A stretch of DNA of 64,000 bases. Origin: Acidobacteriota bacterium (GTDB taxonomy: Bacteria > Acidobacteriota > Vicinamibacteria > Fen-336). The stretch lies in NCBI GenBank assembly GCA_011526565.1, contig WYBL01000028.1:1-64000 (forward strand). Reading direction: 5' to 3'. The position numbers and the translations under genes were made by a program. Positions 48,991 through 63,716 of the stretch are shown here, piece after piece. Under the pieces are notes generated by a model, which worked only from the letters and a program-made list of their open reading frames with translations, was not told where the DNA came from and ran no database searches. Within the stretch, counting starts at the first letter, position 1; each line of letters starts with the position of its first letter.

Positions 48991-49878
48991 ATGGCGGACC
49001 TCAACGACCTCCTCGACCAGGCGACGGCGCAGGCGACGGGGCTCAGCCAGCAGGTCGAGACGGCGCTCTCGGCGGTGGACGAGGTGCTCCAGCACGCTCG
49101 CGGGATCGTCGAGCGGGTCGGCGCGGACGGCGCCGCCGCCCGCGCCGGCCTGGCGGGCCTCGGCGACCGGCTCGCGCAGCTCGAAGACGACGTCGAGCAG
49201 CAGGCGAACGAAGCCCGCGGCCGGCTCGACGCCCTGCAGGCCGAGGCCGGCGAAGCCCGCGGCGAGTTGCAGGGGATCTTCTCCCGCATGCAGGACCTGC
49301 TCGAGTCGAGCCGCGCGGAGCAGCAGCGCCTGGTCGAGTCCTTCGACGCCGACTCCGACGCCGTGGTCACCGCCGCCCAGCAGGCCGTCGCGGCCATGCG
49401 CGAGCTGGAGGCGGAGGCGGGGGGGCAGATCAGCAGCCTCGAGTCGGCGGTCGGCGACTTCCACGCGCAGCTCGAGCGGCTGCGCGACGACGTGGCCGCC
49501 CGCCTCGCGGCGGCCATGCAGCAGGTGAACGAGTTCGTCGCCGAGGTCGAGGGCCTCGCCGAGCGCACGGCCGACGTGACGGAGGACGTCGTCGGTCGGG
49601 CCCGCGAGGAGGTCGAGATCTTGAGCGAACAGGTCCCGGCCCAGGTCGCGGAGGCCGCGCGCGCGATCGGCGAGAAGTACGGCGAAGAAGCGGTGCGCCA
49701 CGTGCAGGAACTGTTGCCCCGCTTCGAGAGCACGCTCGACGAGTTCGCCCAGGAGGCCGAAGCGATGGTCCACGAGCTCGACGAGCGACGCTCCCGGGCC
49801 GCCGACCACGCGAACGGCATCCGCAGCTTCCTCGACAACGTCGAAGAAGTGGCCCAGGCCGCCCAGGTCCTCGCCTAG
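48991..49878 (+). CDS. Cluster gene 1: helical coiled-coil protein
   Basis: A 295-residue, acidic, cytoplasmic-looking protein starting at ATG 48991 with a purine-rich ribosome site. It is almost entirely long amphipathic helices rich in Ala, Glu, Gln, Leu and Arg ('LGDRLAQLEDDVEQQANEA', 'LESAVGDFHAQLERLRDDV'), with heptad spacing and few Gly/Pro. There is no signal peptide or membrane helix. The composition recalls apolipoprotein-like or chemoreceptor-like rods, not a known enzyme. It is the first of nine such genes in tandem, followed after 21 nt by the next. Function unknown; structural or scaffolding role is inference. Confidence 0.75.
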   Translation: MADLNDLLDQATAQATGLSQQVETALSAVDEVLQHARGIVERVGADGAAARAGLAGLGDRLAQLEDDVEQQANEARGRLDALQAEAGEARGELQGIFSRMQDLLESSRAEQQRLVESFDADSDAVVTAAQQAVAAMRELEAEAGGQISSLESAVGDFHAQLERLRDDVAARLAAAMQQVNEFVAEVEGLAERTADVTEDVVGRAREEVEILSEQVPAQVAEAARAIGEKYGEEAVRHVQELLPRFESTLDEFAQEAEAMVHELDERRSRAADHANGIRSFLDNVEEVAQAAQVLA

Positions 49879-49899
49879 CCCTCACCGCAAGGAGCCGCG

Positions 49900-51000
49900 A
49901 TGTCCGCAGAAGCGACCCAGAATCTCGAACGATTCGTGCAGTCGGTCGGCGAGAGCCGCACCCGGCTGGAGCAGATGGCCGGGGAAGCGCGCTCGCTCGC
50001 GGCCGAGCTCGGAGCCTCCCACGAGCGCCTCGACTCCGCCTCGCGCGAGGTCGCCGAGCAGGCGCCGCGCGCGCTGGCGGCGTTGGAGGCCGCGAGCCAG
50101 CAGGGGAACGCCCAGCTCCAGGCGCTGGCCTCGGCCGCCGGCGCCGGGTTGCCGGCCGAGGTCGAACAGCTCCAGTCGCAGGTGGGCAGCGACGAGCCGG
50201 CGGCCGTCGAGCAGTCGACCCAGGCGCTCGGAGCGTCGCACGCCGAGGCCGACTCGCAGGGCCTCGAGCCGCTGCAGGCCGCGGCCGGAGCGGCCGAAGC
50301 GGAGGCTCGCGAGACGACCACCGAACTCGTGGCCTCGATGGAGGCCGCGTTCAAGTCGGTGACGCTGGGCATGGACGCGGTGCAGAGCCAGTCGGAGCAG
50401 ACGCTGCCGGCGCTGACCGGGCACCTGCAGCTCTACGCCGAGCTCGACACCCGCGTCTCCGTCGCCGGCGACGGCTTCGCCAATCGCGTGAACGAGGGCG
50501 TGCTCGTGCCGCTCGGGCTCGATGCAGCCGCGACGGCCGCGACGGCCGCGACGGCCGCGGGCGCGATTGCGACCGGCGGGTCCTCTGCGGCGATGCCCTC
50601 GAGCCTGGGGGCCCCTGCCCCCGGCCTCGCTCACATGGAGTTCAACCCGGCCGCGGCGAACCTGATCCAGGACGGCGGCGCCTACGCCGTTCCGTTGAGC
50701 GCGGCGGGCTTGATCAGCGATGACGGCAGCACAATGGCCCCAGTAGAAGCCGCCGAACTCATCGGAAACGACGCGGGCAGCCTCGTGGCGGCCGGCGCGG
50801 GCAACCTGATCGGCGAGGACGGCGCCAGCCTCGTGGCGGCCGGGGCGGGCAACCTGATCGGCGAGGACGGCGCCAGCCTCGTGGCGGCTGGGGCCGGAAA
50901 CCTGATCGGCACCGACGCGGCCAGCCTCGTGGCAGCCGGCGCCGGGAACGTCCTGCCGTCCGGCGCCGGCGGGCTCGTCGGCAACAACGGCAACACGTAG
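49900..51000 (+). CDS. Cluster gene 2: coiled-coil protein with C-terminal 16-residue repeats
   Basis: A 366-residue protein starting at ATG 49900, with AAGGAG upstream. Residues 1-200 form helices like those of its neighbours. A short Ala/Thr-rich linker (about 208-226) leads to six consecutive 16-residue repeats (255-350) with consensus LIGxDGASLVAAGAGN, and a Gly/Asn-rich end. The repeats carry hydrophobic residues at fixed positions separated by Gly/Asp turns, as expected of a stacked beta-solenoid or amyloid-like array, or a binding tail. The last four repeats are nearly identical, and two differ only by silent changes. No other protein of the cluster has such a tail, so this one may be the tip or the anchor of an assembly. 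Confidence 0.75.
   Translation: MSAEATQNLERFVQSVGESRTRLEQMAGEARSLAAELGASHERLDSASREVAEQAPRALAALEAASQQGNAQLQALASAAGAGLPAEVEQLQSQVGSDEPAAVEQSTQALGASHAEADSQGLEPLQAAAGAAEAEARETTTELVASMEAAFKSVTLGMDAVQSQSEQTLPALTGHLQLYAELDTRVSVAGDGFANRVNEGVLVPLGLDAAATAATAATAAGAIATGGSSAAMPSSLGAPAPGLAHMEFNPAAANLIQDGGAYAVPLSAAGLISDDGSTMAPVEAAELIGNDAGSLVAAGAGNLIGEDGASLVAAGAGNLIGEDGASLVAAGAGNLIGTDAASLVAAGAGNVLPSGAGGLVGNNGNT
50527..50553 (+). repeat. Three tandem 9-bp repeats (GCCGCGACG)
   Basis: Three exact copies, plus a partial fourth, encoding the Ala-Thr linker of cluster gene 2. A likely site of slippage. Confidence 0.85.
50662..50949 (+). repeat. Six tandem 48-bp repeats in cluster gene 2
   Basis: The period is 48 bp (16 codons), in frame. 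The units start at 50662, 50710, 50758, 50806, 50854 and 50902. The first two are diverged and the last four are very similar, which suggests recent duplication from the 3' side. Confidence 0.85.
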
Positions 51001-51015
51001 GAACGGGAGAGCGAG

Positions 51016-63071: not shown

Positions 63072-63074
63072 ATT
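63069..63074 (+). promoter_or_regulatory. Possible internal -10 element (TAGATT)
   Basis: TAGATT includes the stop codon of cluster gene 14 and ends 6 nt before ATG 63081. An internal, nearly leaderless promoter for the FHA/J-like gene is possible. The spacing is at the short end. Confidence 0.3.
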
Positions 63075-63080
63075 CACCTC

Positions 63081-63716
63081 ATGCTCCAGCTCTTCCTCGT
63101 GCCCGCTGCCGGCGACGCAATCGAGATCACCACCGACCGGGCGGCCGTCGGACGCCGCGAGACCTGCGAGGTCCACGTCGCGGATCGTTCCGCGTCGCGC
63201 AACCACGCCCGCCTCGAGCGGCGCGACGACGGCTGGTACGTGATCGACGAGGGCAGCGCCAACGGCACCTTCGTCGACGGCACCCAGGTCACGGAGGCGA
63301 AGCTCGCGGCGGGGGCCGAGGTCCAGTTCGGCGACGTCGGCTACCGGGTCGAACTGCGCGAGGACCAGGCGGTCGTGGAGACGGTGCAGATGGCCGTGCC
63401 GCGCGGGCTGCGCTTCGACGAGCCGGGCCGGCGCCCGAAGGCGGCGCCCGCCCCGCTGCCGGCGGAGTCCCCGACGATCCGCGCGCGGCCGGCCGCGGGG
63501 TCGGCGATGACGCAGGAGGCCGCGCGCGAGCAGCTCGGCCTTCCGCCCGGCGCCTCGGTGGCCGACGGCCGGCGCCGCTACGAGCAGATCTTCAACGACT
63601 ACCAGGTCCGGGTCACCAATGCCCCGACCGCCGCCCTGCGGCGGATGTACCAGCGCAACCTCAACGAGTTGAAGCAGGCGTTCGAGACCCTGTTTCCAGG
63701 GCAAGCCTTGCCGTGA
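63081..63716 (+). CDS. Cluster gene 15: FHA protein with J-domain-like C-terminus lacking HPD
   Basis: A 211-residue soluble protein starting at ATG 63081. The FHA domain (about 5-95) has VGRRETCEVHV, SASRNH and SANGTFV. A Pro/Ala linker leads to a C-terminal helical domain (about 142-207): 'AREQLGLPPGASVADGRRRY', a loop with TNAPT, then 'YQRNLNELKQAFETLF'. The LGL-x3-AS start, RRY helix and LKQAFETL last helix follow the layout of J-domains, but the HPD tripeptide in the loop is missing. In a cluster with an Hsp70 paralogue this looks like a dedicated partner with an altered contact. The J-like reading is inference from pattern only. Confidence 0.78.
   Translation: MLQLFLVPAAGDAIEITTDRAAVGRRETCEVHVADRSASRNHARLERRDDGWYVIDEGSANGTFVDGTQVTEAKLAAGAEVQFGDVGYRVELREDQAVVETVQMAVPRGLRFDEPGRRPKAAPAPLPAESPTIRARPAAGSAMTQEAAREQLGLPPGASVADGRRRYEQIFNDYQVRVTNAPTAALRRMYQRNLNELKQAFETLFPGQALP

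What the first reader, a model, noticed from the sequence alone, without database searches (positions are those of the whole stretch)
48991..63716. Fifteen-gene coiled-coil / membrane-hairpin / Hsp70 / FHA / PDZ cluster: candidate undescribed system
Nine tandem Ala/Glu/Gln-rich helical proteins are followed by a membrane-hairpin protein, a short Hsp70-family ATPase, a single-pass membrane protein, an FHA-TM protein, a secreted PEGA-like/PDZ protein and an FHA protein with a J-like domain. All are on one strand with gaps of 21 nt or less, or overlaps. I know of no described system with this combination. A model: the helical proteins build a cytoplasmic scaffold at the membrane, the hairpin protein anchors it, the Hsp70-like ATPase with its J-like partner assembles or dismantles it, and FHA domains report Thr phosphorylation across the membrane.
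Basis: partly seen in the sequence, partly recalled or inferred. Interest (0 to 1): 0.93.

Follow-up and report, generated by a model that had tools for sequence, protein, structure and literature searches.

The report
Candidate Hsp70-driven toxin-delivery gene cluster
Fifteen adjoining bacterial genes encode two sets of long, predicted-helical proteins together with a lidless Hsp70 chaperone and a membrane protein predicted to be dynamin-shaped but lacking the GTP-binding motifs, and because three further copies of this protein set in two related genomes sit beside genes with toxin or immunity domains, the cluster is likely a new machine that would assemble these helical proteins to deploy toxins against neighbouring cells.

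Summary
All 15 genes are present as described, on one strand, with gaps of at most 21 nt or overlaps. They form a conserved two-part system. (1) Four-gene cassettes A-B-C-D (about 295/322/308/305 aa): the nine coiled-coil genes are two cassettes, the first with B apparently split into cc2+cc3. (2) A core: the 'hairpin' protein, Hsp70, two single-pass proteins with related extracytoplasmic domains, a PDZ protein, and an FHA protein with a J-like domain lacking HPD. The hairpin protein is predicted to have a bacterial-dynamin/mitofusin fold, but 0 of 15 relatives has a P-loop. The Hsp70 clade lacks lid and canonical linker in 17 of 17 aligned. In the class, type A genes were found in 6 of 193 genomes, the same six with strong hairpin matches. 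Of 17 cassettes, three, in two relatives, adjoin toxin or immunity genes; the window's two do not. Reading committed to: one envelope-anchored Hsp70 machine serving interchangeable helical cassettes, likely for toxin deployment, under phospho-threonine control. Architecture is well supported; function is inferred.

The parts
48991..49878 (+). cc1 = cassette 1, type A (295 aa)
   Evidence: type A profile built without the window 118.5 bits vs at most 51.4 for other types; 266-bit best match G210:C27 type A
49900..51000 (+). cc2 = cassette 1, B1 (366 aa), helical N part, C part of 16-residue Gly/Ala-rich repeats
   Evidence: type profiles do not decide (C 20.4, A 16.0, B 13.4 bits); assigned by position and by orthologues in G210:C27 and G209:C133; 48-nt tandem repeat 50778-50949
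51016..51360 (+). cc3 = cassette 1, B2 (114 aa)
   Evidence: best type B 25.2 vs 10.9 bits; orthologues of 114-116 aa in G210, G209
51373..52305 (+). cc4 = cassette 1, type C (310 aa)
   Evidence: C 68.0 vs 40.5 bits
52316..53248 (+). cc5 = cassette 1, type D (310 aa)
   Evidence: D 89.9 vs 59.0 bits
53262..54149 (+). cc6 = cassette 2, type A (295 aa); AlphaFold2: helices 2-117, 122-259, 267-294, pLDDT 64.5
   Evidence: A 100.2 vs 36.7 bits; model
54151..55128 (+). cc7 = cassette 2, type B (325 aa), hydrophobic C-terminus
   Evidence: B 106.7 vs 50.4 bits
55125..56060 (+). cc8 = cassette 2, type C (311 aa)
   Evidence: C 87.6 vs 50.3 bits; its nearest BLAST neighbour is, however, a type A protein, the one exception of 67
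56050..56958 (+). cc9 = cassette 2, type D (302 aa)
   Evidence: D 81.8 vs C 74.2 bits, small margin
56955..58868 (+). predicted dynamin/mitofusin-fold membrane protein (630-637 aa) without P-loop; hydrophobic hairpin about residues 416-460
58872..60395 (+). divergent Hsp70 ATPase (507 aa), no alpha-helical lid, non-canonical interdomain linker
   Evidence: PF00012 2e-60; alignment with 16 clade members and 10 other Hsp70s
60392..60880 (+). tm12: single-pass membrane protein with extracytoplasmic domain (162 aa)
   Evidence: domain homologous to that of fhaTM13, hhalign 98.6% E 1e-15
60877..61971 (+). fhaTM13: FHA domain, TM, extracytoplasmic domain (364 aa)
   Evidence: FHA 1.6e-18; TM window at residue 196
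61968..63071 (+). pdz14: probable secreted PDZ protein (367 aa)
   Evidence: PDZ_2 1.4e-7; signal peptide by eye only
63081..63716 (+). fha15: FHA domain plus J-like domain lacking HPD (211 aa)
   Evidence: FHA 1.5e-17; G-R, S-x-x-H and N-G residues invariant in 5 aligned; HPD absent in 7 of 7
63769..64000 (+). start of the ECF sigma-factor gene (continues beyond the window; two protein kinases follow)
   Evidence: Sigma70_ECF 2e-55, Pkinase 1e-37 and 7e-38; sigma and kinase also beside cassette 1 in G209 and G210

Best explanation
The cluster encodes one core machine (a predicted dynamin-fold membrane protein without GTP-binding motifs, a lidless Hsp70, two single-pass proteins, a PDZ protein and two FHA proteins, one carrying a J-like domain) plus two A-B-C-D cassettes of long, predicted-helical proteins, and it likely works as an envelope-anchored apparatus in which the Hsp70 would assemble and remodel the cassette proteins to deploy polymorphic toxins against neighbouring cells. 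Shown here: the gene set, its conservation, the cassette structure and its repetition in six genomes, the loss of GTP motifs, the missing Hsp70 lid and linker, the missing HPD, and toxin or immunity domains beside three cassettes of relatives. Predicted by model: the dynamin fold and a long helical hairpin for type A. Inferred: the pseudo-dynamin sits in the inner membrane and, since it cannot bind GTP by the known motifs, the ATP cycle of the overlapping Hsp70 gene's product replaces GTP hydrolysis; the J-like/FHA protein recruits the Hsp70; protein kinases encoded next door phosphorylate threonines that the FHA domains read, switching assembly on; tm12, fhaTM13 and the PDZ protein couple it to the periplasm; one core serves several cassettes, as a type VI core serves scattered VgrG islands (VgrG analogy recalled).
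For: Conserved unit: hairpin gene then Hsp70, 7 of 7 loci, followed in the family by tm12, fhaTM and pdz. Cassettes: leave-one-genome-out profiles give the expected type for 20 of 20 proteins; nearest neighbour of the same type for 66 of 67; order A-B-C-D in 13 of 14 complete cassettes, A-D-B-C in one. Co-occurrence: type A in 6 of 193 class genomes at E<=1e-12, the same six with hairpin matches of E<1e-200; chance of identical sets 1.5e-11, or 3e-4 within the 14-genome family, neither corrected for descent. Toxins/immunity: G206:C98 Imm35-A-B-C-D-Gln_amidase-Imm35-like; G066:C94 A-B-C-D-Gln_deamidase_2; G206:C21 Endonuclease_NS-like-SUFU-A-B-C-D, mostly 9-101 nt apart. PMC3482391 (passages) reports Imm35 as tied to the papain-like toxin Tox-PL1 and SUFU as immunity proteins for nuclease and peptidase toxins. 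J-like domain fused to a tm12-like domain in G152 (hhalign 91.5%, E 9e-7). Kinase genes beside the cluster, beside the G206:C98 cassette and, fused to a caspase domain, beside Hsp70 in G573.
Confidence: 0.4

Rival explanations
1. One reading: the helical proteins build a cytoplasmic scaffold or cytoskeletal rod at the inner membrane, anchored by the hairpin protein and kept dynamic by Hsp70 and the J-like protein; the toxin genes beside three satellite cassettes are incidental.
For: Near-constant lengths (type A 295.4, sd 2.0; D 304.7, sd 3.0), hydrophobic period about 3.6, no evident signal peptides, no toxin beside the window cassettes.
Against: Imm35 on both sides of one cassette-toxin operon and toxin or immunity genes at two more cassettes; satellite cassettes lie away from the core.
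Confidence: 0.25
2. A membrane-maintenance system working like chloroplast VIPP1 with HSP70B and CDJ2: amphipathic helical polymers coat stressed membrane and the Hsp70 with its J-like partner assembles and disassembles them.
For: Weak apolipoprotein-like profile matches of cassette proteins; HSP70B/CDJ2/CGE1 assemble and disassemble VIPP1 rods (PMC10602608, passages); membrane-fold partner.
Against: Four distinct conserved subunit types, patchy distribution (6 of 193 in the class) and toxin/immunity neighbours do not suit housekeeping; apolipoprotein matches are below cut-offs and typical of coiled coils; no PspA/IM30 family was listed (lists capped at 25).
Confidence: 0.15
3. An intracellular conflict or anti-phage system of the GTPase/Hsp70 type, in which the pseudo-dynamin and Hsp70 sense a trigger and activate effector toxins inside the same cell.
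For: PMC7159879 (passages) describes predicted conflict systems that combine GTPases, Hsp70, kinases and effectors; a kinase-caspase fusion sits beside the pair in G573.
Against: Here the GTPase motifs are lost; immunity proteins point to toxins exchanged between cells; PADLOC finds nothing for the core proteins scanned.
Confidence: 0.12

Closest known systems
Bacterial dynamin-like proteins / mitofusins (BDLP, Campylobacter DLP1/2, IniA, Fzo1)
   Same: Predicted fold: helices, G-domain-like alpha/beta unit, long trunk helices, hydrophobic hairpin between the trunk halves
   Different: No GxxxxGK[ST], no DxPG-type or [NT]KxD motif in the N-terminal part of 15 of 15 relatives
Cyanobacterial 'chaperone group' of BDLPs (PMC5827413, section 7 read)
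   Same: A dynamin-like gene followed by a gene with a DnaK domain
   Different: Those DLPs were collected by the dynamin GTPase family and nearly all keep an extended P-loop; no cassettes, FHA or toxin genes are described there
VIPP1 with HSP70B, CDJ2 and CGE1 (PMC10602608, passages)
   Same: An Hsp70 with a dedicated J partner assembling and disassembling a helical membrane-linked polymer (works-like only)
   Different: One polymer protein rather than four types; canonical Hsp70 (recalled); no toxins
Type VI secretion with PpkA and Fha (PMC3953482, abstract and outline)
   Same: FHA protein and threonine kinase; a core plus scattered cargo islands (islands recalled)
   Different: No type VI structural family met its cut-off among the core proteins scanned; Hsp70 instead of an AAA+ recycler
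Polymorphic toxin systems (PMC3482391, passages)
   Same: Papain-like toxin with Imm35, and SUFU immunity, beside three cassettes
   Different: Toxins are separate genes next to A-B-C-D, not C-terminal domains of a long trafficking protein
GTPase/Hsp70 conflict systems (PMC7159879, passages)
   Same: Hsp70 with a GTPase-fold partner and effector-like neighbours
   Different: GTP motifs lost here; helical cassettes not among the passages seen

Membership tests
Bacterial dynamin-like protein (56955-58868) | Dynamin-superfamily fold with membrane hairpin or paddle | tested here: met
Bacterial dynamin-like protein (56955-58868) | GTP-binding motifs G1 (P-loop), G3, G4 | tested here: not met
   0 of 15 aligned relatives; so not filed as a dynamin GTPase
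Hsp70 (58872-60395) | Hsp70 profile and ATP-site motifs | tested here: met
   PF00012 205 bits vs 20.6; DLGT and GGGTFD-type motifs in 16 of 17 aligned clade members, degraded in G203
Hsp70 (58872-60395) | Canonical linker (LLLDV-type) and alpha-helical lid | tested here: not met
   Absent in 17 of 17 clade members; present in 9 of 10 other Hsp70s of these genomes; the tenth (L004, 520 aa, another branch) also lacks both. NCBIfam DnaK/HscA models far below cut-off
J-domain protein (63081-63716) | DnaJ profile at curated cut-off | tested here: not met
   0 of 5; sub-threshold in 3 of 5, best 21.6 vs 27.8 bits
J-domain protein (63081-63716) | HPD motif | tested here: not met
   Absent in 7 of 7; called J-like only
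FHA domain (60877-61971, 63081-63716) | FHA profile; conserved pThr-site residues | tested here: met
   PF00498 1.6e-18 and 1.5e-17; G24-R25, S39-R40-H42, N61-G62 invariant in 5 fha15 sequences. Binding itself not testable here
Polymorphic toxin system | Toxin and immunity genes in one operon-like unit with the system | tested here: inconclusive
   Met beside 3 of 17 cassettes, in G066 and G206; not at the window
Polymorphic toxin system | Toxin as C-terminal domain of a trafficking protein | tested here: not met
   The toxin-domain genes beside cassettes are separate ORFs of 161-232 aa
Type VI secretion system | Core Tss proteins, Hcp, VgrG in the cluster | tested here: not met
   No such family among the 15 window proteins in Pfam; TagH FHA 52.9 vs 120.25 bits. 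Rest of the genome not searched
VIPP1/PspA (ESCRT-III-like) | PspA_IM30 profile or fold | tested here: inconclusive
   Not among listed Pfam matches (capped at 25); type A model gave 0 matches at E<=0.001
Type VII (WXG100/LXG) substrates | WXG100-type profile and EccC-type ATPase | tested here: inconclusive
   WXG100 33.8 vs 27.3 bits for G210 type A and EspC 28.8 vs 23.5 for G206 type A, but no single stretch passes and other coiled-coil families match as well; no EccC among the 15
Known anti-phage defence systems | PADLOC model | tested here: inconclusive
   None for the 6 core proteins; only weak coiled-coil matches (best 1e-5) for 2 of 4 cassette proteins scanned

The most novel reading that the evidence does not exclude
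A secretion-like apparatus outside the numbered types: a single Hsp70/pseudo-dynamin envelope machine loads interchangeable heteromeric helical rods (A-B-C-D), each cassette able to carry its own toxin and immunity genes, with chaperone ATP hydrolysis standing in for the lost GTPase and FHA/kinase signalling as the trigger.
Probability: 0.3. Interest if true: 0.95.

Novelty: categorically new. Interest (0 to 1): 0.82.

Why it matters
If true, it adds a toxin-deployment machine built on a chaperone and a GTP-motif-less dynamin fold rather than on AAA+, FtsK-like or contractile parts, and gives a bacterial case in which an Hsp70 is genetically locked to a dynamin-shaped protein. It also explains a set of otherwise anonymous coiled-coil genes and makes clear predictions: A, B, C and D should form one complex, and the Hsp70 should act on it. 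Even without the toxin role, a lidless Hsp70 with a non-canonical linker paired with an HPD-less J-like protein tests how much of the Hsp70 cycle can be rebuilt.

Tried and rejected
Considered and dropped: (a) active dynamin GTPase: motifs absent in 15 of 15. (b) DnaK or HscA orthologue: far below NCBIfam cut-offs. (c) nine equivalent coiled-coil paralogues: four types instead. (d) fifteen genes as one ancestral operon: in G209 and G210 two loci. (e) a known fold for the cassette proteins: type A model has pLDDT 64.5 and 0 Foldseek matches at E<=0.001; sequence matches to solved structures are apolipoproteins, designed bundles and other coiled coils. (f) FHA ligand at the hairpin protein's C-terminus: 7 of 15 relatives end in [DE]xTIA[LFI], but the window's copy does not. 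(g) a sigma-70 promoter: none found, 0.1 expected, uninformative. (h) gliding motility: the GltG FHA model matches far below cut-off (43.7 and 49 vs 650).

Led nowhere: other Hsp70-like loci of the own genome (L008-L010; window-trained calls gave no related neighbours); genome-contig scan found only 2 loci; type A profile found 4 proteins; G227 has only fragments of the hairpin gene.

Limits: the genome search scores only the best few candidates per genome (3-12), so counts are lower bounds; gene calls outside the window are from my own script; types were first assigned by eye from order and C-termini, then checked by leave-one-out profiles; B1/B2 rest partly on position; the type C protein of G203 was cut to 275 residues where the frame breaks; nuo and VgrG-island statements beyond the calls are recalled. 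Cassette counts include G206_C60, whose type A comes from contig C253 and B-C-D from C60 (a presumed join, by label only), and incomplete cassettes at contig ends. Flanks were Pfam-scanned for 9 cassette sites beyond or including the window; those of G209 and of G210's cassette 1 were named by similarity to the window's gltX, sigma and kinase genes; G203's contigs end.
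Full report
WHAT IS THERE. The fifteen genes are real open reading frames on one strand, 48991-63716, with 14 junctions of 1-21 nt or overlaps of 4-11 nt. Upstream is a glutamyl/glutaminyl-tRNA synthetase gene (47350-48843), downstream an ECF sigma factor (63769 on) and two protein kinases. The window is contig C180 of a 5.79 Mb, 181-contig genome. Two relatives can be tied to named records by equal contig length: G210:C12 (270,160 bp) with JAMQGV010000021.1 and G206:C253 (9,767 bp) with JAICEW010000253.1, both titled Vicinamibacteria; G210 is listed as same genus. 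The class is thus inferred.

THE HSP70. PF00012 matches at 2e-60. A search returned 313 proteins at E<=1e-60; of the best 120 most are 504-510 aa long. In an alignment of 17 clade members and 10 other Hsp70s from these genomes, ATP-site motifs are kept in 16 of 17 (degraded in G203), the linker LLLDV-type segment is replaced by an LPPELRGVSGY-like segment, and no alpha-helical lid follows, in 17 of 17. Nine of the ten comparison proteins have both; the tenth, a 520-aa Hsp70 (L004), has neither, so lid loss alone is not unique.

J-LIKE AND MEMBRANE PARTNERS. The last 70 residues of fha15 look like helices I-II of a J domain but never contain HPD (0 of 7) and stay under Pfam's cut-off (0 of 5 reach it). 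In G152 the same domain is fused to a TM segment and a tm12-like domain (hhalign 91.5%, E 9e-7), and tm12 and fhaTM13 share that extracytoplasmic domain (98.6%, E 1e-15). The FHA residues G-R, S-R-x-H and N-G are invariant in five fha15 sequences. Relatives also carry a secreted protein of about 300 aa near fha15; the G203 copy is DUF481 (1e-25), an outer-membrane-type family (recalled); it is not among the 15 window genes.

CONSERVATION. With the hairpin profile, 7 of 193 class genomes match: five relatives and the own genome strongly, G227 by fragments; in the phylum samples 3 of 199, with Hsp70 3 of 396, and 2 of 148 in G152's class. Hairpin and Hsp70 genes are side by side in 7 of 7 loci with both whole (gap -4 to +3); in G206 the hairpin tail and Hsp70 lie side by side on C66. 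In the family tm12, fhaTM and pdz follow, with fha15 and the cassette on either side or strand.

CASSETTES. The coiled-coil genes of five relatives fall into four types. Profiles rebuilt without the test genome give the expected type for 20 of 20. In the window cc1=A, cc4=C, cc5=D, cc6=A, cc7=B, cc8=C, cc9=D (narrowly); cc3 is best B; cc2 is undecided by profile but has orthologues in the same place in G210 and G209. A type A search of the class finds 6 of 193 genomes at E<=1e-12, the same six with strong hairpin matches, and extra copies at other loci; in the phylum sample 2 of 396, both of this family. Fetching these loci shows further cassettes: 17 in all, 14 with all types, 13 of these in the order A-B-C-D and one A-D-B-C. 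Lengths barely vary (A 295.4, sd 2.0; D 304.7, sd 3.0), and 66 of 67 members have a nearest neighbour of their own type. In G209 and G210 the cassette with split B stands between gltX and the sigma/kinase genes, exactly the flanks of the window cluster, while their core lies elsewhere. The window is therefore a merger of that cassette with the core.

TOXIN AND IMMUNITY GENES. Pfam scans of cassette neighbours found: G066:C94, Gln_deamidase_2 (98.5 bits) 101 nt after D; G206:C98, Imm35 9 nt before A, Gln_amidase 'papain fold toxin 1' 43 nt after D, then an Imm35-like gene overlapping it by 4 nt (27.2 vs cut-off 27.5), with a kinase upstream; G206:C21, an Endonuclease_NS-like gene (below cut-off) and SUFU 16 nt before A (gaps). 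PMC3482391 (passages) states that Imm35 is associated only with Tox-PL1 and that SuFu domains are immunity proteins. Counter-evidence: 14 of 17 cassettes, including both in the window, have no recognised toxin neighbour; among 14 family genomes the two glutamine-deamidase families gave three hits, two beside cassettes and one not. The families were picked after seeing them beside cassettes, so no probability is claimed.

OTHER COMPANIONS. Beyond this family the hairpin-Hsp70 pair keeps company with other repetitive proteins: in G152 an 833-aa heptad-repeat protein, in G573 a decapeptide-repeat protein, a STAS protein and a kinase-caspase fusion.

HOW IT MAY WORK. The core and the cassettes belong together (shown). 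Because the partner with the GTPase fold has lost its motifs and the adjoining Hsp70 keeps its ATP site, ATP turnover by Hsp70 is the likely energy source (inferred). An Hsp70 with a J partner can assemble and take apart helical rods, as HSP70B/CDJ2/CGE1 do with VIPP1 (PMC10602608, passages). One core with several cassettes, some with toxin and immunity genes, plus FHA and kinases, resembles the logic of type VI secretion, where Fha binding to phosphothreonine of TssL activates secretion (PMC3953482, abstract). So I commit to toxin deployment at 0.4, with scaffold, membrane-maintenance and intracellular conflict readings as rivals. The nearest printed precedent for the gene pair is the cyanobacterial 'chaperone group', where a DnaK-domain gene follows a dynamin-like gene (PMC5827413, section 7). 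Searches for the combination in print listed nothing that describes it; the library lacks most subscription papers.

Noticed in passing
L061 (G573:C83) 2637-8922: STAS protein, pseudo-dynamin, Hsp70 and a protein kinase-caspase fusion in a row, with a second caspase-domain protein (518 aa) next to it.
   Followed up: partly
L035/L036 (G152): 833-aa protein with 14-residue 'EAQSAEGEARTAAG'-like repeats directly upstream of the pseudo-dynamin gene.
   Followed up: partly
window 50778-50949: 48-nt tandem repeat in cc2 coding a 16-residue Gly/Ala-rich unit; the unit pattern and copy number differ in G209 and G210.
   Followed up: partly
C-termini of relatives of 56955-58868: 7 of 15 end in [DE]xTIA[LFI], a possible FHA phospho-threonine ligand; the window copy lacks it.
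   Followed up: partly
L029 7327-8850 (G203): Hsp70 of the clade with degraded ATP-site motifs.
   Followed up: no
L062 (G206:C259) 5741 on: Second clade Hsp70 copy without core genes beside it, split in two frames in the search.
   Followed up: no
L085 (G206:C2) 8456-9482: Gln_deamidase_2 gene with a 150-aa neighbour but no cassette.
   Followed up: partly
window 63769 on; L007 4350-9660: ECF sigma factor and two protein kinases of about 870 aa downstream; sigma and kinase neighbours recur beside cassette 1 in G209 and G210.
   Followed up: partly
L037/L038 (G227): Fragments of a hairpin gene and a PDZ-like gene, perhaps a decayed cluster.
   Followed up: no
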